Assembly: GCA_016865505.2 (NCBI GenBank)
Contig: AP025252.1
Location: 5,540,137 to 5,604,136 of the forward strand
Direction: 5' to 3'
Length of the DNA stretch: 64,000 bases
Source: Bryobacterales bacterium F-183
GTDB taxonomy: Bacteria > Acidobacteriota > Terriglobia > Bryobacterales > Bryobacteraceae
How positions within the stretch are numbered: the stretch's first letter is position 1; each line of letters opens with the position of its first letter. The notes under the pieces were generated by a model. The model saw only the letters and a list, made by a program, of their open reading frames with translations, searched no databases and was not told the origin of the DNA. A program made the translations under genes and the position numbers. Shown here in pieces: positions 54,494 through 64,000 of this stretch.

Positions 54494-57454
54494 TCACTCC
54501 TGCTGACTTTCTTCCTCGCCCGCGGCGGTGTTGGCAACCCCACCCGCCGCGGCGGCCGGAACTCTACGGCCCGCGTTGAGGTTGTCGTAGTTCAACATCG
54601 CGTTGAATAGCAAAAAGAAGCTGCCTTGCGTCTCATAACGCCACATCGGGTTGTTGGCAAACAGCACGATGTGGCCTTTTCCTTTGGGTACATCCACCAC
54701 CGCCGGCTTGCCCGCCAGTTCCCTGCCCCCGGCCAACATGCCGGAAATCAGCAGCTCATTCTCCGGCCCAAACCGTAGCACCGTACGCGGCAAAGTTTCA
54801 GGTGCCGGCAACCGACCCCGCATCGTCTCCGCGATCTCCGCAGGCACCGCAGATTCTTCACCCACCCGAGGCGCAGGCGGCGCAGGCTCACGGTACGGCC
54901 GCCCCTGAATGATGTCCGGGTCATTCAACCCGCCGCGCCCCGTAGGACGGCTCGCCGCCGCAGCATTCGCGCCACCGCCACCACCGCCGGCAGTCAGACG
55001 CCCCATGCGATTGATGTTCAACACCGGAGCCTGGTTGAAGTACACACCCAGCTTCTCGCCGTACCCGTAAGCAATCGGGCTCTTGCGATCCGTAAACGTC
55101 GACGAAAGCACGCTCCCGCGAGCGCGCAACTCCCGCGGCTCCTGAATCGAAACCGTGTCGATAAAGCCGAAATCAATCGGGATGCTCGCATTGCTGCCAA
55201 TCGTGATGAACAGCCCGCCGTTCTCCACAAACTTCTGCAGATGGATCAACCCCTGCAACCCAAACCCGCCGCGTATGTCCGCAGCCTGATCCGGTGAATC
55301 CCCAATCGACGGCGTCAGCGGCGACTTCTGCCACGGAATCGCCTCCGTCGCCTGCACACCGTTCAAAAGCGCCTGCGCAGACTGCCGAATCGGACCATAC
55401 AGAATCACATCAAACTTGCTCCGCAGATCCGGCGTATCCCGCAACACATGATCCGAAACGTACGTGTACGGGATCTTCAGCTTATCGAGCGCAATGCGGT
55501 ACCAGCCCTCATCCTGCGTGCTCAGCCACGAATGCACCAAAGCCACCCGAGGCGCAGCCAGCGCATGCGTCGGAACCTTATCCGGCATCGCCGCCAGCCC
55601 ATACGCGTTAAAGCCATACTCGGCAGCCGCCGCTTCCAACTTCGCCCGCAACCCCGGCGCATCCGGAATCAAAAACGTACCAGCGTTGAACACCCGCCCG
55701 TCCACCTTGAACGCTTCTTCCGCCGCCAGCATCTTCACGTCTTTCATCGCAAAACGGAAGCTCGCCAGCGTGTTATCCGCGTTGTGGTTGATTGCATACA
55801 CCGCGCCCGTACCTTCCACGCGCCCCTTCACCTGGAAAGGACCCTTCACCTCAGTCATCGGCGCCTGCAGAATCGAAGCATCGGCCACGCGAATCGTCTT
55901 TACGTTGCGCAGCGCCCCAAACGTCCAGCCCGTGTCATCGTACGGATTCGTATCGTTGACGTTGTAGTACTGCGTATCAAGCAGCATGTCCGCCAACCGG
56001 CTATACGGCTGATCCATCCGGATCACATACGACCCCGCCGGAGCCTTCATCGCCACGCCCTTCAGCTTCACCTCGGTCTCGCGATCGAGCTTGTGCACTT
56101 CAATACCCTGCAGCCGGAACAGATTCAGCATCTCCGCCACTTCCACAGGCCGCGGATCGTCGGCCGGCAGAATCCACGCCCCAGGACCTTCCGTCGTGCC
56201 CTTCGCGATAGACCGCTTACTCTTCAGATAGAAGTTCCGTAGAAAATCCTGCTTGTGATTCGCCGCATAACTCAACGCCAGCAGTACGCCGCTCTGTTGA
56301 TAGTTGACGTTGTTCCGGTGCGACCATTTCACCTGCGGCAGTGGCGGATTCGGACGGAACCACGCGCGAGTAGTCTGCGCCGCAGGCACCGTACGATCCC
56401 GCGTATCGGCCCCACCATTGCCAAAAGTCTCGTAAAAACGCCCAATTGAGTTATGCGTCTGCGCCGACATGAACATATAGTTCACCGCCCAGCCGTCATA
56501 AAAGCCTTGCGTCCAAACCCCAGCCAACCCACGCTTGGTCAGCTCTTCTACTTCGTAGTAAGCCAGCCGCTGCCACTCGCTAATCGACACCGGATCGAGC
56601 CACGCATTGTAAGGACCCAACCCCGTCGAGATGTACAAGAACGGCACGGACTCATGCAGGTCGAGCAACACCTGCGGATGGAACTCAAAGTACATCCGCA
56701 TCACAATCTTCGACAGCTCCAGCGACAGCACCATCGAGTCGCGATTGTTGTCATGCGCGACATACTTGCCCCAGTACACCAAAGGCATCGCCGGACGATT
56801 GGGAAACTCCTTGCGGTACTTGTAGACATCCACCATCCGGTCATGCCCATCCACCTCAAGCACCGGCGTGATGATCACCACCGTGTTCTTGCGGATGTTC
56901 TGCACAAACGGAGACTCTTCCACCGCCAGCCGGTACGCCAACTCCATCAGCATCTCCGGCGACCCCGTCTCGGTCGAATGAATCGACCCGTTGATCCAAT
57001 AAATCGGAAGCCCTTCGGCAATCAGCTTCTCCGCATCAGCATCGGTAATCTTCCGAGGATCCGAAAGCTTGGCCGTAATCTCCTTGAGCCGCGCAAGCTT
57101 GGCATGATTGGCCTCATCGGTGATGACAATCATCGCCGTATCGCGGCCTTCCTCGCTCTTGCCAACCTGCGAAAACTTCACCCGGGGCGAAGTCCGCGCC
57201 AGTTCCGCCACATACCCATTGATCTCTTTAACAGGAGTGAGCCGGTTCGGAGCCCCGGCAATGTAGCCCAAAAACTTCTCCGGAGTCGGAACCTTATCGG
57301 AGGCCGGAAGATGATCCACAAGCTCGGTCAAAAAGCTAGGATCCGTAGTCGCCTCGCGAACCTTCTTGGCGTACCCCTCGTCCATCTTCTGGACCGCAGA
57401 GGTCTGTCCCAACAGAGAAAGGCCAACAAAAAGGAGAAACAGCGCAGACTTCAT
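54494..57454 (-). CDS. Exported M14 zinc carboxypeptidase-like protein
   Basis: A 986-residue protein with a signal peptide (LFLLFVGLSLLGQTSA). The M14 peptidase domain (about 55-400) has the zinc pair in GSIHSTETGSPEM (H159, E162) and the third ligand histidine in LLDLHESVPF. The long C-terminal part resembles the class-I glutamine-amidotransferase-like extension found in large M14 proteins of Acidobacteria and Bacteroidetes, with a glycine/alanine-rich stretch (LTAGGGGGGANAAAA) near 835. It should trim peptides outside the cytoplasm. It stands alone; it converges with the alcohol dehydrogenase gene (51 nt), and the CHAT gene lies upstream on the same strand. Confidence 0.9.
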   Translation of the reverse strand: MKSALFLLFVGLSLLGQTSAVQKMDEGYAKKVREATTDPSFLTELVDHLPASDKVPTPEKFLGYIAGAPNRLTPVKEINGYVAELARTSPRVKFSQVGKSEEGRDTAMIVITDEANHAKLARLKEITAKLSDPRKITDADAEKLIAEGLPIYWINGSIHSTETGSPEMLMELAYRLAVEESPFVQNIRKNTVVIITPVLEVDGHDRMVDVYKYRKEFPNRPAMPLVYWGKYVAHDNNRDSMVLSLELSKIVMRMYFEFHPQVLLDLHESVPFLYISTGLGPYNAWLDPVSISEWQRLAYYEVEELTKRGLAGVWTQGFYDGWAVNYMFMSAQTHNSIGRFYETFGNGGADTRDRTVPAAQTTRAWFRPNPPLPQVKWSHRNNVNYQQSGVLLALSYAANHKQDFLRNFYLKSKRSIAKGTTEGPGAWILPADDPRPVEVAEMLNLFRLQGIEVHKLDRETEVKLKGVAMKAPAGSYVIRMDQPYSRLADMLLDTQYYNVNDTNPYDDTGWTFGALRNVKTIRVADASILQAPMTEVKGPFQVKGRVEGTGAVYAINHNADNTLASFRFAMKDVKMLAAEEAFKVDGRVFNAGTFLIPDAPGLRAKLEAAAAEYGFNAYGLAAMPDKVPTHALAAPRVALVHSWLSTQDEGWYRIALDKLKIPYTYVSDHVLRDTPDLRSKFDVILYGPIRQSAQALLNGVQATEAIPWQKSPLTPSIGDSPDQAADIRGGFGLQGLIHLQKFVENGGLFITIGSNASIPIDFGFIDTVSIQEPRELRARGSVLSSTFTDRKSPIAYGYGEKLGVYFNQAPVLNINRMGRLTAGGGGGGANAAAASRPTGRGGLNDPDIIQGRPYREPAPPAPRVGEESAVPAEIAETMRGRLPAPETLPRTVLRFGPENELLISGMLAGGRELAGKPAVVDVPKGKGHIVLFANNPMWRYETQGSFFLLFNAMLNYDNLNAGRRVPAAAAGGVANTAAGEEESQQE

Positions 57455-57479
57455 AACTTCAAAGCTTAGCGCAGCCTGT

Positions 57480-59933
57480 CTACTCCACCGCCGTAGCGAA
57501 CACCTGAAAAGGCGCCCAATAGTACGGCTTCGAGTACGCCCCGCCCGCCGCCATCATCCGGATCTTCGCCTCCCGCAACGCCGCCGCCGGATGCACCTTC
57601 TTCGTCCGCATCACTTCATAAAAATCCCGCATCAGCTTCGACGTGGACTCATCATCGACGCGCCACAACCCCGCCACCACATTCCGAGCCCCAGCCCGCA
57701 AGAACGCCCACGAGAACCCCACCAATCCCTCACCAGCAAACGCCGTCGACCCCGCCGACTGGCAAGCCGACAACGTCACCAGACCTCCACGCAGCGGCTG
57801 CGACAACACCTGCCGCGCCGTCAATCGGTTCCCCTTCTCCCCCGGCGTCAACACGACAGCCGAATCCAAAGGACTCCGCGAGTTCGCCTCCGCGTGTGCT
57901 GCAAAGTGGATCACATCAAACCCCGCAGGCTTCGCCGCAAAGTACGCCTCAGGCCGCGCGGCTGCCTGCTCCAATCGCTTATTATTCTTCCCGTACAACC
58001 CCGCGATGGATTCCAGTTCCGCATGCGCATTGGCGAGCTTCGGATATCCCGCCTCCCCCGTCACCGGATCTCCAATCAACAGCGCAGTCGCCCCCGCCTT
58101 GGCCGGAACCGCAGGCGCTGCCGTCAGCACACTCAACGACGGCGCCACCGCCACCTCTGTCTGCAGGATCAACTGCTCCCCCGCCGGCGCCGCCAAAGTC
58201 TCAAAGTTGATCCAATGCAGCGCCCCATCCGGAACCACAATCAACCGCTTCGGCAACGGCGTTTTCGCACGGTCAATCAACTGCTCGCGTAACTCATACG
58301 CCGGCTGATAGCTGAACGGACCCACCGCGCCGCCCCGCTCGATAAAGTCCCGGTACGCGTCTACCAAATCCGCGAACGCCTTCGACGACCCCATCTCCGT
58401 ACCCAGCCGCGCACCCTTCCCATCGATGATCCAAAGGAAGGACCGCTTCGGCCCCAGCCAGTAGTAGTACACCGCAGCCTTCGCCTTGGCCAGCCGCGCC
58501 GACAACCGCGCCAGGTCGAACCGTACTCCTAACGGCTGCGGCGCCGCTTCCGAAAACACCTGCAACCGGCTCGAATCGGCTACTCGCAGCGCATCCATCG
58601 GCAACTTCGCCGACACCAGAAAATCCACATAATCCTGATACACGCGCGTGACCGTGGAGAGAAACGCCATCTTCGATTCGTCCTGCCGCAACGCCCGCCG
58701 CAACCGCGCGACCGTCGCCACCGCGTCCTCGTACGCCGAAATCGCCGGACGCGCCGGGCCATGCGACCCCAGCCAATTCGCGATCCGAAGCCGAGCCTCC
58801 ACAATCGCCGTCTGATCCCGTCCGGACTCCAGCTTCGCCGCCGCCTGATACGCCTCCAGCGGACTCTTCCCCTGCTTCTCCAAAATCCGCCCGCGGGTCA
58901 GCAATATCCACGGATACTCAAACGTCGCCTCGTACCCCGGCACAGCCTCAGCACGCTTCAACGCCGCTTCCGCCTCTGCCGTACGATTCAGTTCCACATC
59001 GCTCGCCGCCAGATCGCTCAGCACCCCCACCACCTGCGTACCCGGGGACTCCGGCTTCAACAACCCTTGCGCCTGCTCAAACAGCCGCCGCGCCGCATTG
59101 AAATCACCCCGAAAGTACGCAATACTCCCCAAATTTCGCAGCGCCAACCGCTGCTCCGCCGTAGATCCCAACCGCTCAAACGTCTTCCCCGCCCGCGTGA
59201 AGTACTCCTCGGCGCGCTCTTCCTGCCCCATCAGCTGCCGGACCCACCCCAGGTTCGCTTCCGTACTCGCAGCCGTCAGCAAATCCGACGTCCGAGTCGC
59301 CGCCTGCAGCAGTTCCTCAAACAGCGCCGCAGCTTCATCCAGCCGGAACTGCCCCGCATAGTGGAACCCTAGGTTACCCGTCGCAAATGCGTACGTCTTC
59401 TGATCTCCAGCCTGCAGCGCCTCTGCCCGGATCCGCCGTAAATCCTGTTCCGCCGCAGCCCCCGGCAACTTGCCCAATGCCGCAGCCGCCTGTTCCCGCC
59501 GGATCAGGTCTTGCAAGCCCAGTTTTCGGATCGAAGCCCGCACTGCGGGCAATTCTTTGGCATCCCGCCGAGCCAGAAGAAAGCGTACACCGCCCTCGGT
59601 CTGCCGTGCCGGCTCAGGCACCGGCAAAGCCAGGATCTGCTCGCGTTTCTTGAACTCTTCGAGCTCCGTCAGCGCTTCCACCTGGACAGTACGCAGGCGC
59701 CAGTGCTCCGGCTTGGTGGGATCTTTGTAGGTTGTTTCTAAGCCGGCCTCCGCCGCACGCAACGCTTCCGAGGCGTGCGACGTACGCAGCAGCCTCTCAG
59801 CAATCTCCGGCGGAGGACCAGCTTTGGAATCAGAGGACTGGCGGGCGCAACTCAGCGACGCAACAAGCGCCACCAAAACCAGCACCAGTAGCGGAATCTT
59901 ACGGATACGGTGGGTACCGGACGCCGTTTCCAC
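57480..59933 (-). CDS. TPR repeats plus CHAT caspase-like peptidase domain, exported/lipoprotein
   Basis: An 817-residue protein starting at GTG 59933, which overlaps the preceding gene by 35 nt; upstream in-frame codons would place that gene's sequence in front. The N-terminus has a hydrophobic signal (PLLVLVLVALVASLSC) with a possible lipobox cysteine. Residues 60-440 are helical TPR repeats (NLGFHYAGQFRLDEAAALFE, LGWVRQLMGQEERAEEYF, LGSIAYFRGDFNAARRLF). The C-terminal CHAT domain (about 540-815) keeps the caspase-like dyad: histidine in VIHFAAHAEA and cysteine in TLSACQSAG. It ends with YWAPFQVF, typical of CHAT. It is the last gene of a sigma/anti-sigma operon, so a signal-dependent protease is a fair inference. 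The target is unknown. Confidence 0.9.
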   Translation of the reverse strand: METASGTHRIRKIPLLVLVLVALVASLSCARQSSDSKAGPPPEIAERLLRTSHASEALRAAEAGLETTYKDPTKPEHWRLRTVQVEALTELEEFKKREQILALPVPEPARQTEGGVRFLLARRDAKELPAVRASIRKLGLQDLIRREQAAAALGKLPGAAAEQDLRRIRAEALQAGDQKTYAFATGNLGFHYAGQFRLDEAAALFEELLQAATRTSDLLTAASTEANLGWVRQLMGQEERAEEYFTRAGKTFERLGSTAEQRLALRNLGSIAYFRGDFNAARRLFEQAQGLLKPESPGTQVVGVLSDLAASDVELNRTAEAEAALKRAEAVPGYEATFEYPWILLTRGRILEKQGKSPLEAYQAAAKLESGRDQTAIVEARLRIANWLGSHGPARPAISAYEDAVATVARLRRALRQDESKMAFLSTVTRVYQDYVDFLVSAKLPMDALRVADSSRLQVFSEAAPQPLGVRFDLARLSARLAKAKAAVYYYWLGPKRSFLWIIDGKGARLGTEMGSSKAFADLVDAYRDFIERGGAVGPFSYQPAYELREQLIDRAKTPLPKRLIVVPDGALHWINFETLAAPAGEQLILQTEVAVAPSLSVLTAAPAVPAKAGATALLIGDPVTGEAGYPKLANAHAELESIAGLYGKNNKRLEQAAARPEAYFAAKPAGFDVIHFAAHAEANSRSPLDSAVVLTPGEKGNRLTARQVLSQPLRGGLVTLSACQSAGSTAFAGEGLVGFSWAFLRAGARNVVAGLWRVDDESTSKLMRDFYEVMRTKKVHPAAALREAKIRMMAAGGAYSKPYYWAPFQVFATAVE

Positions 59934-60627
59934 CGACGTTCGGACCTTCAAACATCCCTTCGAACCCACACCCCATTTCAGCACGGAACATGGTGAGTGA
60001 CCGTGCGTACGGTGTGATCCAGTACTCGCCCAGCACCACTCGGCCAAACTGCGGCACATCCACAATGTGCGGAGCCTCGGCCACCCGCGAACACTTCGCG
60101 CTGGCCACCGCGCTCGTCACCAGGCAGAACCCCGGTGATGCCGTATGCAGGTTGAACTTCGGATCCCGGCGCACCGCGTCCTCGGCCCAACGCTCAACTT
60201 GTGGATGGAACTCTACGTCCACACGCTCGCCCGCAATCCGCAAGTTTTCAAACCGCGAACCCGCGATGCTAAACACCGGGTCGCCCTTGAAGGGCCGCTT
60301 CACGCTCAGCACAGCTGTAATACGGTCCGCCGTGATCTGCCCCAGTATGTCCAGGTCTTCAATCGTCGAAATACACACCGTATTCCAGGCGTACTCGTCT
60401 TCGTGTTTCGACCCGGTCACCTGCGAGGTAACGCGCCCAATGCGAATGATTTCCCGCAGCCGGTACCCTTCGTCCTTGCTCCGTGCCGACGCATATCCAC
60501 CCGAAGGCGGCAGCGCGCATGACGCAAGCGCATCCACCGGTACGTCAAACGGACGCGTCAGACGCCCGGAAAAGCCCACGGCATGACCGTGAAACTGAAA
60601 TTGAGGTTCGTCAGTTTTTTTGTGCAC
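59899..60627 (-). CDS. Protein of unknown function from a CHAT-associated operon
   Basis: A 242-residue protein without signal or membrane helix. Conserved-looking phrases are GFSGRLTRPFDVPVDALAS, LPPSGGYASARS, VCISTIEDLDILGQITADRI, GSRFENLRIAGERVDVEFHP and FGRVVLGEYWITPYARSLTM. I recall similar unannotated proteins in other phyla but know no function for them. It starts with GTG within the end of the anti-sigma gene (17-nt overlap) and overlaps the CHAT gene by 35 nt. Such nested overlaps mean these proteins are made together, so it could be a substrate, activator or inhibitor of the CHAT protein. Confidence 0.8.
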   Translation of the reverse strand: MHKKTDEPQFQFHGHAVGFSGRLTRPFDVPVDALASCALPPSGGYASARSKDEGYRLREIIRIGRVTSQVTGSKHEDEYAWNTVCISTIEDLDILGQITADRITAVLSVKRPFKGDPVFSIAGSRFENLRIAGERVDVEFHPQVERWAEDAVRRDPKFNLHTASPGFCLVTSAVASAKCSRVAEAPHIVDVPQFGRVVLGEYWITPYARSLTMFRAEMGCGFEGMFEGPNVGGNGVRYPPYP

Positions 60628-61336
60628 GAGTTAGTTCGAAGTAGTATAGCCGGTCTGGCAGCGGCATGCCGCCCGGGTCTTTCCGCGCCAATGCCACCGT
60701 GTAAACGCCAGGCTCCAGCGTACCCGCACCAATAATAATCACCAACGCGCCGCGTACGGACTTCGCCTCGCCCGTCAGCCGCGTCTTGCCTTCGTTGGGA
60801 TAGAGGTTCCAGTGGTACAGCCCGTCGGTGGGAACATCGATGGTGAGCGAGATTGCTGTGTCCGCGGAGGCCGATGCCGAAACCGCAGCGCCTCTGGCAT
60901 CCGCCCGCAAAATCAAAGGCGCCGCAGATTCAATTCTCGGAGCAGCCAGTTCTCGGTACTGCTGGAAGGAAACGACAGCGAAGAAGAGCGCTACGGCCCA
61001 GGGAACCCACACGCGCACGCCCGGCCGGGGCATCCACCCCGATCTGCGATCCGCAGCGGCACGAACCTGCGCATCCTGAGTTCCCTGGGCAGCCGCGTCA
61101 GAAGACGGGACAATGCCAGCCCTCCTGCGGCTTTCCGCAACATTCAGGCTTGGATCCGCCTGGAGCAATGCCCTGGCGGCCTCCTCTAGAACCGCACCCG
61201 TCCGCAGTGCCTCAGCACACGTTGGACAGCCGAAAAAGTGCTCCTCAAAGCGAGCCCGCAAAGCGGGTTCCAGATCGCCGAGCAAATAGCGCTCGACGGC
61301 TTGAGAAGCAACGGCATGCTGGTGATCGGATTCCAT
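60611..61336 (-). CDS. zf-HC2 anti-sigma-like membrane protein
   Basis: A 241-residue protein. The N-terminal zinc-finger region has EEHFFGCPTC (H-x3-C-x2-C), the hallmark of zf-HC2 anti-sigma factors, preceded by AVERYLLGDLEPALRARF. A single membrane helix lies at about 107-126 (VWVPWAVALFFAVVSF). The outer domain is beta-rich (TIDVPTDGLYHWNLYP, LEPGVYTVALARKD). It starts 9 nt after the sigma-like gene and overlaps the next gene, so it should hold that sigma factor at the membrane until a signal comes. The signal is not known. Confidence 0.88.
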   Translation of the reverse strand: MESDHQHAVASQAVERYLLGDLEPALRARFEEHFFGCPTCAEALRTGAVLEEAARALLQADPSLNVAESRRRAGIVPSSDAAAQGTQDAQVRAAADRRSGWMPRPGVRVWVPWAVALFFAVVSFQQYRELAAPRIESAAPLILRADARGAAVSASASADTAISLTIDVPTDGLYHWNLYPNEGKTRLTGEAKSVRGALVIIIGAGTLEPGVYTVALARKDPGGMPLPDRLYYFELTRAQKN

Positions 61337-61345
61337 GCCTGAACC

Positions 61346-61990
61346 TTATGAGGGAGAAGGAGAAGTACCAGCAGCCGTCGAAGAAGAGGCTGCCGCCGCC
61401 ATCAAATCGCGAAATCGCAGGCGTGCGCGGAACAGGAGGCGCCGCAAATAGGCGGCATCGGCCTGCTCATCTGCCTGCGTGGACTTCGTCCCTCGCCCAA
61501 AACGTTCAATAAAAAGATCACGGTCGCGCTCCGGAAGCTCATCGAGCAGCCGGCGTACAGCTTCTTGACACCCCCCGCTGCACCACTCCGGCCAGATCCT
61601 GGCTGGGGCTGACTCTAACGGCGCCTCCAACTCAGTACCATTCGCCGAACCGCTACAACTGCGGCATAACTCAAGGAGCGCAACCCCGAGCACTTGGGGA
61701 TTGGTCCACCGCTCAGGCGAATCTATCATCGCCTGGCACGATATACGTACCACCCGCTCCACAAGTTCCTGCGAGGTCGCGAGTTCCGGCCGGTTCTGTT
61801 TCAACCAGACCCGCACTACAACTCTTACATGGGCCGCAAATTGTTCTACCGCAACAGCTTCCTGTCGCGAAACGCGATCCAGAAACGATGCCTCAAACAA
61901 TCCGCCAGATTCGGACGGCGACGGCGGATTCAGGCGGGAAAAGGTCTCCTCCACACTGAGTATGCGCGTTTTGATGGAATCTGAGGACAT
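61346..61990 (-). CDS. Divergent ECF-like sigma factor
   Basis: A 214-residue protein with a weak sigma-2-like helical region (about 40-90, FAAHVRVVVRVWLKQNRPEL, VERVVRISCQAMID) and a sigma-4-like C-terminus (LLDELPERDRDLFIERFG, YLRRLLFRARLRFRDLM). The -10 recognition region is poorly conserved, as in acidobacterial ECF variants that accompany zf-HC2 proteins. The start is ATG 61990; an earlier ATG at 62026 is less likely. It is the first gene of the four-gene operon that ends with the CHAT protein, and presumably activates it. Confidence 0.75.
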   Translation of the reverse strand: MSSDSIKTRILSVEETFSRLNPPSPSESGGLFEASFLDRVSRQEAVAVEQFAAHVRVVVRVWLKQNRPELATSQELVERVVRISCQAMIDSPERWTNPQVLGVALLELCRSCSGSANGTELEAPLESAPARIWPEWCSGGCQEAVRRLLDELPERDRDLFIERFGRGTKSTQADEQADAAYLRRLLFRARLRFRDLMAAAASSSTAAGTSPSPS

Positions 61991-62088
61991 ACGGTAGCAA
62001 AAATTTTTGGCCTTTCTTTTAGTCACACCAAATACACAGTCAAAAAGCTGTAACCAAACGATTTCAGAAACATCTTGTAAACAGGGAC

Positions 62089-62117
62089 TTAACTTTGGCC
62101 CACCAGTCTGTTATACT
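62089..62117 (+). promoter_or_regulatory. Sigma-70-type promoter of rpoD
   Basis: TTAACT (62089-62094) and TATACT (62112-62117) are separated by exactly 17 nt on the plus strand, five of six matches to TATAAT and four of six to TTGACA. It lies about 242 nt before the rpoD start, giving a long leader. Confidence 0.6.
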
Positions 62118-62358
62118 GAAGGCCGAACCTTTAGGTCGGGAAGCCAGCGCGCTTTCGCGCATAAGCACCTCTGCCACCAGCACCCGCCGGGATCGAGTTC
62201 CAGTTCCTGAAGTATCACCGCCATCCAGCATGGGCAGGCCAGTTGCGGCCTTCTTTCGATCGTTTGGATCGAATCAGGGCGTTTCTGCGTCTAACAAGTC
62301 GAAGCCCCGGTGGAATAACGCAGCATAAGCAAAAAAATTATGCGCGGGTGGAGAGGGA
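62118..62358 (+). other. Untranslated leader of rpoD
   Basis: About 240 nt between promoter and start codon. It contains a short GC hairpin, GCGCGCTTTCGCGC (about 62147-62160), and a CGATCGTTTGGATCG hairpin (about 62257-62271). A frame from 62095 to 62328 is open but does not resemble a known protein. No riboswitch was recognised. Confidence 0.4.
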
Positions 62359-63888
62359 GTGCAATTAAAAGTGGAATACGAAGATCAAAACGAACCACAT
62401 GAGGCGATAGCGCTGAACTTCGACGAGGATGCGAATTTTTTCCATCCCGAAGAACTTCCCGAAGGCGAAGAGCAGGCCCCTCAAGAAGAATCGATTTACA
62501 CCGACGACCCCGTTCGCGTCTATCTGCGCGAAATGGGTGCGGTACCTTTGCTCACCCGTGAGGGTGAAGTTAACCTCGCACGCCGCATGGAACGCGGCAA
62601 GTTGCGTATGCATCGCGCCATCAGCCGGTCGCCGCTGGTGCAGCACCTCGTGCTCGAATGGGCCGATCAGCTGAAGCGCGGCGAAGAAGAGCTCGACGAA
62701 CTCGTCGACATCGGCGGTGACATTGAAGACGGCACCGCGCAGGACACCCGCCGCCGCAACGAACTCTCCAAGCAGTTTGTGGAAATCACCACGCTGCAAA
62801 AGAAGCTGACCCAGACCGAAGACAAAGCCGCTCAAGTCCCCGCTTCCAACAAGAAGCTGCGCAAAAAGTGGCACGTCAAGATTCTGCGTGCCCGCGTCGA
62901 TCTTTCCAAGGGCATTCGCGCCATCCCGTTCCAGAACCTCCGTTGGCGCCAGTTCGTCAAGGAACTCGAAAAGTCGGTGGAAGAAATCAACCACCTGCAC
63001 ATCGAGCTGCGCCGCGTCGAAGAACGTAAGACCCAGGCCAACGAAGCCCGCGCCAAGGAAATCAAGCGTGAAATCCGCAAGCGCGAACACATCGCCGGCG
63101 CTTCGCTTTCCGAGCTGAAGCACTCGCTCTCGGTCATCCGCCAGGGCGAAATCGAAGCCGAGCGCGCCAAAAAGGACCTCGTCGAAGCCAACCTTCGCCT
63201 TGTCGTTTCGGTCGCCAAGAAGTACGTCAACCGCGGTCTGCACCTTCTGGATCTCATCCAGGAAGGCAACATCGGTTTGATGCGCGCCGCCGACAAGTTC
63301 GAATACCGCCGCGGTTACAAGTTCTCGACCTACGCCACCTGGTGGATCCGCCAAGCGATCACCCGCGCCATCGCGGACCAGTCGCGTACGATCCGCATCC
63401 CGGTGCACATGAACGAGAGCATGAACAAGTTCCTGCGAGCCACCCGTGAGCTCGAAAAGGAACTGGGTCGCGCTCCAACGAACGAAGAAATCTCCCGCCG
63501 TATGGACATTCCGGTAGAGAAGGTCCAGAAGCTGAAGACCATTTCTCGCGACCCCGTGTCGCTCGAAACCCCAGTCGGACGCGACGGCGAATCCGCTCTC
63601 GGCGACCTCATCGAGGACCGTTGGGTCGGCTCCCCCGTGGACACGGTCATCGACTCGAACGTCCGCGACGAGACCGCCAACATCCTGAAGACGCTGTCGC
63701 CCAAGGAAGAAAAGGTGATCCGTCTCCGCTTCGGCATCGGCTGCGAGCGCGAACATACTCTCGAAGAGATCGGCCAGGAGTTCGACGTCACCCGCGAACG
63801 CATCCGCCAGATCGAAGCCAAGGCGCTACGCCAGTTGCGCAGCCCGGAACGCGCCCGTCACCTGCGAGCGCTCCTCGCCGCCCGCTAA
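62359..63888 (+). CDS. rpoD: Primary RNA polymerase sigma factor RpoD
   Basis: A 509-residue group 1 sigma factor. Region 1.2 is [21 protein letters not shown] non-conserved charged insert runs from about 100 to 260. Region 2 is [20 protein letters not shown], then [19 protein letters not shown] and [20 protein letters not shown] (2.3-2.4). Region 3 is [18 protein letters not shown]. Region 4 is [20 protein letters not shown]. It lacks an acidic 1.1 domain of E. coli size. The start is GTG 62359, directly behind GGAGAGGGA; ATG is not available at this point. It is transcribed alone with its own promoter and terminator, divergent from the sigma/CHAT operon. Confidence 0.96.
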
Positions 63889-63908
63889 TAAGAAGCCATC
63901 AAGAAACG

Positions 63909-63941
63909 AAAAGGGCATGCCTTAAACGGCGTGCCCTTTTT
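63909..63941 (+). terminator. Intrinsic terminator of rpoD
   Basis: An AAGGGCATGCC/GGCGTGCCCTT stem (one G-T pair) with a 6-nt loop, followed by TTTTT. It starts about 20 nt after the stop codon. Confidence 0.93.
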
Positions 63942-64000
63942 GCATAGAATGCGGCGTCCAAAACCCACCCAAAACCGGGTCAGACTGCTATGTCCCCTTT

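What the first reader, a model, noticed from the sequence alone, without database searches (positions are those of the whole stretch)
57480..61990. Nested operon: ECF-like sigma, zf-HC2 anti-sigma, unknown protein, TPR-CHAT peptidase
Four minus-strand genes are joined by a 9-nt gap, a 17-nt overlap and a 35-nt overlap. The final product has an intact caspase-like His/Cys dyad and a signal sequence; the third has no known function. The design suggests that an envelope signal frees a sigma factor that raises production of a protease and its partner. It resembles a conflict or stress system, with the unknown protein as candidate target or inhibitor.
Basis: partly seen in the sequence, partly recalled or inferred. 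Interest (0 to 1): 0.7.

Follow-up and report, generated by a model that had tools for sequence, protein, structure and literature searches.

The report
Sigma-controlled CHAT protease operon
In soil Acidobacteria a caspase-like protease anchored outside the inner membrane is almost always encoded together with a dedicated partner protein and appears to be switched on by its own sigma factor/anti-sigma pair; in the bacterium read here the sigma switch has largely decayed while the protease and its partner remain under strong selection.

Summary
In detail: four minus-strand genes with exactly the stated 9-nt gap, 17-nt and 35-nt overlaps. It is a conserved module, not chance: 59 of 66 loci found with the unknown protein alone show sigma - zf-HC2 anti-sigma - unknown (CAP) - CHAT, and 29 of 30 loci found with CHAT alone have CAP next to it. 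The unknown belongs to NCBIfam choice_anch_P but lacks signal peptide and anchor. The CHAT His/Cys dyad is intact in 81 of 81 proteins; 81 of 86 have an N-terminal export or anchor segment.

New here: a promoter motif, TGAAACG-N16-CACTAT, lies directly before anti-sigma-CAP-CHAT and before sigma. It occurs 160 times versus 1 in control, tracks the module across 396 genomes (p = 2e-12), and also precedes genes for peptidases, phosphoesterases and exoproteins. So in relatives the sigma factor very probably drives the operon and a small regulon.

In the window's genus the sigma factor has lost key region 2 and 4 residues, the motif is gone and the anti-sigma stalk is shortened, while CAP and CHAT stay constrained (dN/dS 0.07). 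The conflict-system reading is unsupported. CHAT cleaving its own anti-sigma is plausible but untested.

The parts
61346..61990 (-). Degenerate ECF-type sigma factor (SIG), 214 aa; region-2 DVxQETF and the first part of the region-4 HTH are lost
   Evidence: (phmmer E 2.5e-7 to a relative)
60611..61336 (-). Zinc anti-sigma factor (ANTI), 241 aa: cytoplasmic zf-HC2, one TM helix, extracytoplasmic Ig-like domain
61214..61300 (-). zf-HC2 (ZAS) zinc-binding part of ANTI; HxxxCxxC invariant or nearly so in 87 non-redundant relatives
60944..61000 (-). Predicted TM helix of ANTI (residues 113-131)
   Evidence: (81 of 82 relatives have one)
59899..60627 (-). CAP: all-beta choice_anch_P-related partner protein, 242 aa, no signal peptide or anchor; near-obligate neighbour of this CHAT clade
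57480..59933 (-). TPR-CHAT peptidase with N-terminal export/lipoprotein-like segment
59847..59897 (-). Hydrophobic N-terminal segment of CHAT ending in Cys (IPLLVLVLVALVASLSC)
57894..57896 (-). Catalytic His codon of CHAT (HFAAH)
57762..57764 (-). Catalytic Cys codon of CHAT (LSACQ)

Best explanation
This is a conserved envelope-signalling module of Acidobacteriota. A cytoplasmic ECF sigma factor is held by a single-pass zinc anti-sigma factor with a periplasmic Ig-like domain. When the anti-sigma is inactivated, the sigma reads TGAAACG-N16-CACTAT promoters before its own gene, before anti-sigma-CAP-CHAT, and before a handful of genes for hydrolases and exoproteins. The main output is a membrane-anchored, extracytoplasmic TPR-CHAT cysteine peptidase plus CAP, a near-obligatory all-beta partner that I take to be its dedicated regulator, chaperone or client. 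In the window's genus the sigma arm has eroded, but CAP-CHAT is kept under strong purifying selection, so CAP-CHAT is the functional core and sigma control is an upstream layer that this lineage has replaced or lost. Shown by sequence: gene order, reciprocal CAP-CHAT link, dyad conservation, predicted topology, promoter motif, sigma erosion, selection. Inferred: sigma release, peptidase activity, the role of CAP, the signal.
For: Order sigma-anti-CAP-CHAT in 59 of 66 loci retrieved by CAP only, 65 of 66 from Acidobacteriota and one from Luteimonas. Reciprocal: 29 of 30 loci retrieved by CHAT only, window included, have adjacent CAP. Dyad in 81 of 81. Export or anchor segment in 81 of 86 CHATs, TM in 81 of 82 anti-sigmas, no signal peptide or consistent TM in CAP. 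Motif: 160 sites versus 1 in reversed sequence; 35 loci have it right before the anti-sigma domain; 14 of 20 loci of the window's own family have a related motif there. Exact motif in 13 of 26 CAP+ versus 8 of 370 CAP- genomes, Fisher p 2e-12. Where sigma lies elsewhere in the genome (L207, L208) the motif precedes it there too. dN/dS: CAP 0.067, CHAT 0.069, ANTI 0.29, SIG 0.32.
Against: The window's genome has no exact motif and fewer near-matches than the backward control, so the circuit cannot be shown to operate there. Genomes and loci are phylogenetically related, so counts are not independent. Half of the CAP+ genomes lack an exact motif copy. Promoter function, protease activity and CAP-CHAT contact are all unmeasured. 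dS values are near saturation, so the dN/dS figures are rough.
Confidence: 0.72

Rival explanations
1. CHAT is not only an output but the site-1 protease of the switch: the anchored CHAT peptidase cleaves the juxtamembrane stalk of its own anti-sigma, releasing sigma and closing a positive feedback loop, with CAP tuning CHAT. It would work like Csx29-Csx30-CASP-sigma of type III-E CRISPR, or DegS-RseA. (Compatible with the main explanation; it adds a step.)
For: CHAT and the anti-sigma's Ig domain are predicted in the same compartment. A juxtamembrane segment YQN...P.L is among the more conserved parts outside the zinc finger, and about ten of its residues are missing in the window and its congener, the lineage whose sigma eroded. 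A TPR-CHAT protease cutting a sigma factor's inhibitor is experimentally supported for Csx29/Csx30 (PMC10028731).
Against: No cleavage site can be derived from sequence. The stalk may be conserved for a site-2 protease or for sensing. CHAT lies downstream of sigma in the same regulon, so it may be output only.
Confidence: 0.33
2. A conflict or abortive-infection system in which the protease, with its regulon of hydrolases, kills or lyses the infected or attacked cell.
For: The CHAT/caspase superfamily is common in such systems. Presence is patchy among close relatives and there is one probable transfer to Luteimonas. Several regulon hydrolases lack an obvious signal peptide.
Against: No PADLOC system hit, none in viral contigs. 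The window neighbours are a primary-type sigma factor, an alcohol dehydrogenase-like gene and an M14 peptidase. The CHAT domain is predicted extracytoplasmic, and many regulon proteins carry signal peptides.
Confidence: 0.12
3. One reading: CAP is the substrate or direct inhibitor of CHAT.
For: Reciprocal near-obligate adjacency and equally strong purifying selection on both.
Against: CAP has no signal peptide or TM while CHAT has an export segment. The CAP fold has no confident match to any inhibitor. Adjacency alone does not tell substrate from adaptor.
Confidence: 0.3
4. In the window's genus the sigma has not decayed but changed function, for example to an adaptor or to a sigma with a new promoter.
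For: The ORF stays open in both congeners and SIG dN/dS is 0.32, below 1; the anti-sigma keeps its zinc ligands.
Against: Region-2 DVxQETF and HTH residues that the rest of the family keeps are gone in both; only 51% identity between congeners, against 85% for CAP and CHAT.
Confidence: 0.35

Closest known systems
Type III-E CRISPR Craspase arm (Csx29 TPR-CHAT, Csx30, Csx31, CASP-sigma)
   Same: TPR-CHAT protease encoded with a sigma factor, its inhibitor and a further protein (PMC10028731)
   Different: Inhibitor here is a transmembrane zf-HC2 anti-sigma, not Csx30; CHAT carries an export segment; no Cas7-11 recognised beside it; the Csx29 model scores 31.6 against a cutoff of 300
ECF54 sigma factors
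   Same: CHAT, subtilase and carboxypeptidase genes reported in their genetic context (PMC8999054)
   Different: ECF54 was proposed to act without an anti-sigma factor; here a zf-HC2 anti-sigma is conserved. Group assignment could not be tested
RseA/DegS-RpoE type ECF sigma circuit
   Same: Membrane anti-sigma with an extracytoplasmic domain; autoregulated ECF sigma; PDB hits include RpoE (1or7)
   Different: The protease in the operon is of the CHAT family; the promoter and regulon are different
choice_anch_P proteins (NF040603)
   Same: 13 of 18 CAP proteins match the model
   Different: No signal peptide, no C-terminal anchor, dedicated linkage to CHAT

Membership tests
ECF sigma factor | Sigma-70 regions 2 and 4 present (family level) | tested here: met
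   9 of 11 and 10 of 11 members match regions 2 and 4; ECF sigma structures at E 4e-7
ECF sigma factor | Recognisable region 2 and region 4 HTH in the window copy itself | tested here: not met
   no region 2; region 4 E 0.062; conserved DVxQETF and HTH residues absent
Zinc anti-sigma (ZAS) | HxxxCxxC zinc motif plus transmembrane segment | tested here: met
   (17 of 17 zf-HC2)
CHAT peptidase | PF12770 domain with His/Cys dyad | tested here: met
CHAT peptidase | Proteolytic activity | not testable with these tools
   needs biochemistry
choice_anch_P (NF040603) | Model score above curated cutoff | tested here: met
   37.5 bits, cutoff 27
choice_anch_P (NF040603) | Exported and surface-anchored (as the family name implies) | tested here: not met
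   no signal peptide or TM pattern across 83 CAPs; window sequence
Type III-E CRISPR Csx29 | Csx29 model above cutoff | tested here: not met
   31.6 bits, cutoff 300
Type III-E CRISPR Csx29 | Cas7-11/gRAMP, Csx30, Csx31 and CRISPR array nearby | not tested
   no dedicated search; none recognised among the adjacent ORFs
Anti-phage defence system | Match to a described defence system (PADLOC) | tested here: not met
   only a generic TPR hit and one weak hit (E 0.018)
ECF54 | Group-specific ECF HMM | not testable with these tools
   no ECF-group library at hand

The most novel reading that the evidence does not exclude
A CRISPR-free, envelope-facing counterpart of the Craspase signalling arm: a self-amplifying switch in which an anchored caspase-like CHAT protease, gated by its CAP partner, cuts its own anti-sigma factor to fire a hydrolase regulon, with lineages such as the window's keeping the protease pair after losing the sigma.
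Probability: 0.25. Interest if true: 0.85.

Novelty: new variant of a known kind. Interest (0 to 1): 0.62.

Why it matters
CHAT proteases are widespread, but few outside CRISPR and gasdermin systems have a known regulatory circuit or partner (own knowledge). Here a whole circuit (sigma, anti-sigma, promoter sequence, regulon candidates, near-obligate partner) can be read from comparative genomics in culturable soil bacteria, so CHAT activation and substrate can be tested directly. It also bears on whether the Craspase protease-sigma logic grew out of such chromosomal modules.

Tried and rejected
CAP fold search gave no confident PDB match (best Foldseek E 0.015, prob 0.12; VIA-align best Z 4.7) nor a viral one; weak gasdermin, perforin and porin rows are treated as noise. 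A regex for 'SAC' in CHAT first suggested loss of the catalytic Cys in many relatives; alignment showed it is conserved. The motif was first read in the wrong direction (ATAGTG-N16-CGTTTCA); its position before anti-sigma and sigma fixed the orientation. The M14 peptidase 25 nt downstream was considered as a fifth member; it is absent from the other loci examined. Rfam on 57000-64000 gave nothing above gathering. Literature searches found no paper describing this operon in the library held; subscription journals are largely missing. The Ig-like anti-sigma domain matches many generic Ig folds; no function was read from that.

Full report
Observation. The four ORFs exist at the stated coordinates with the stated spacing. 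Pairwise searches, independent of any profile trained on the window, link each product to its counterpart in a distant relative: SIG E 2.5e-7, ANTI 6e-16, CAP 1e-28, CHAT 1e-93 (locus L041).

Conservation of the module. The unknown protein (CAP) was searched alone. In 396 Acidobacteriota genomes it was found in 21 by protein and 26 by profile, and in the window's own order in 56 of 257. The 17 neighbourhoods first fetched all have a CHAT gene beside CAP. In the reverse direction, the 30 best CHAT loci retrieved by CHAT only (window included) have CAP directly upstream in 29 cases; the exception (L259) has sigma-anti-CHAT without CAP. CAP is therefore the partner of one CHAT clade, not a passenger. 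The scan depended on one peptide pattern, so it undersamples divergent CAPs; one search does not have that bias.

Proteins. CHAT: His and Cys of the dyad are present in 81 of 81 alignable proteins; a basic N-terminus followed by a hydrophobic stretch occurs in 81 of 86, about half with a lipobox-like Cys. Anti-sigma: zf-HC2 in 17 of 17, the HxxxCxxC ligands invariant or nearly so in 87 non-redundant sequences, one TM, and an Ig-like C-terminal domain in the model (pLDDT 76; Foldseek rows are generic Ig or Fn3 folds). CAP: all-beta, model pLDDT 88, no confident fold match, choice_anch_P in 13 of 18 members, no signal peptide. SIG: ECF type at the family level.

Promoter and regulon. Motif discovery upstream of SIG led to TGAAACG-N16-CACTAT, -35 TGAAAC being typical of several ECF sigma promoters (own knowledge). 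With up to one mismatch there are 160 sites in 1.14 Mb of CAP loci, against 1 in the reversed sequence (some loci overlap, so the unique number is lower). 35 loci have it directly before the anti-sigma, 12 before SIG. In 396 genomes exact copies occur in 13 of 26 CAP+ genomes and 8 of 370 CAP- genomes, the latter like the backward control. In two Edaphobacter genomes where SIG sits elsewhere, the motif lies about 224 nt before it. In the window's family the variant TGAAACG-N15-TCACT precedes the anti-sigma in 14 of 20 loci. Genes after other sites include a PF04185 phosphoesterase, two papain-like peptidases, a sedolisin-type peptidase, an A4 peptidase, a calcineurin-like phosphoesterase, PETase-like and DUF900 hydrolases and several secreted or repeat proteins, plus a recurrent family ('PNYFGN', ten loci; the member scanned has no Pfam match) and a small membrane protein upstream of SIG. 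Assignment of sites to genes is by position only.

The window's lineage. Its congener (L220) shares the locus. Both lack DVxQETF and part of the region-4 HTH in SIG, lack the motif and lack about ten conserved juxtamembrane residues of the anti-sigma. Identity between the two is 51% for SIG, 68% for ANTI and 85% for CAP and CHAT; dN/dS 0.32, 0.29, 0.067 and 0.069 (dS near saturation). The simplest reading is that sigma control has been lost or rewired while CAP-CHAT still does its job.

Mechanism. I take the module to be an envelope-signal ECF circuit with a CHAT peptidase and CAP as main output. A feedback role, CHAT cutting the anti-sigma stalk, fits topology and the joint loss of stalk and sigma, and has a precedent in Csx29-Csx30-CASP-sigma (PMC10028731), but no direct evidence. 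A conflict role is not supported by neighbours, PADLOC or viral contigs.

Novelty. ECF54 sigma factors were already noted to have CHAT genes nearby (PMC8999054), and other CHAT loci of the window's genome also sit beside sigma or anti-sigma-like genes (L038, L040). The near-obligate CAP partner, the promoter and regulon, and the decayed-sigma lineage appear undescribed in the papers held. I class it as a new variant of a known kind.

Noticed in passing
window 62060-62330: Intergenic stretch between the operon and the primary-type sigma gene is 89% identical in the congener G486/L220 although synonymous sites of CAP and CHAT are near saturation; no Rfam match, fold z-score only -1.45; found in no other relative searched beyond a 33-nt piece.
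   Followed up: partly
window 62359-63888: Divergent neighbour is a primary-type sigma-70 (regions 1.2, 2, 3, 4), 99% identical in the congener and adjacent there too.
   Followed up: partly
window 54494-57454: Large secreted-looking M14 carboxypeptidase starts 25 nt after CHAT; not found beside the other CHAT loci examined.
   Followed up: partly
L098, L101-L104, L110, L112, L113, L117, L127: Recurrent protein family ('PNYFGN...SGYSGG', 315 to 735 aa in three full sequences) after TGAAACG-N16-CACTAT sites; the one member scanned has no Pfam match.
   Followed up: no
L109, L126, L129, L137, L139 and others: Small single-TM protein gene between the motif and SIG in one group of acidobacterial loci.
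   Followed up: no
L038, L040 (own genome C1:3543000-3557000 and 1758000-1773000): Other CHAT genes of the same genome also sit beside sigma or anti-sigma-like genes without CAP.
   Followed up: no
L146 (Luteimonas panaciterrae): Complete sigma-anti-CAP-CHAT operon in a gammaproteobacterium, suggesting horizontal transfer.
   Followed up: no
L115: Sigma-anti-CAP operon with no CHAT following; the region after CAP holds unrelated ORFs.
   Followed up: partly
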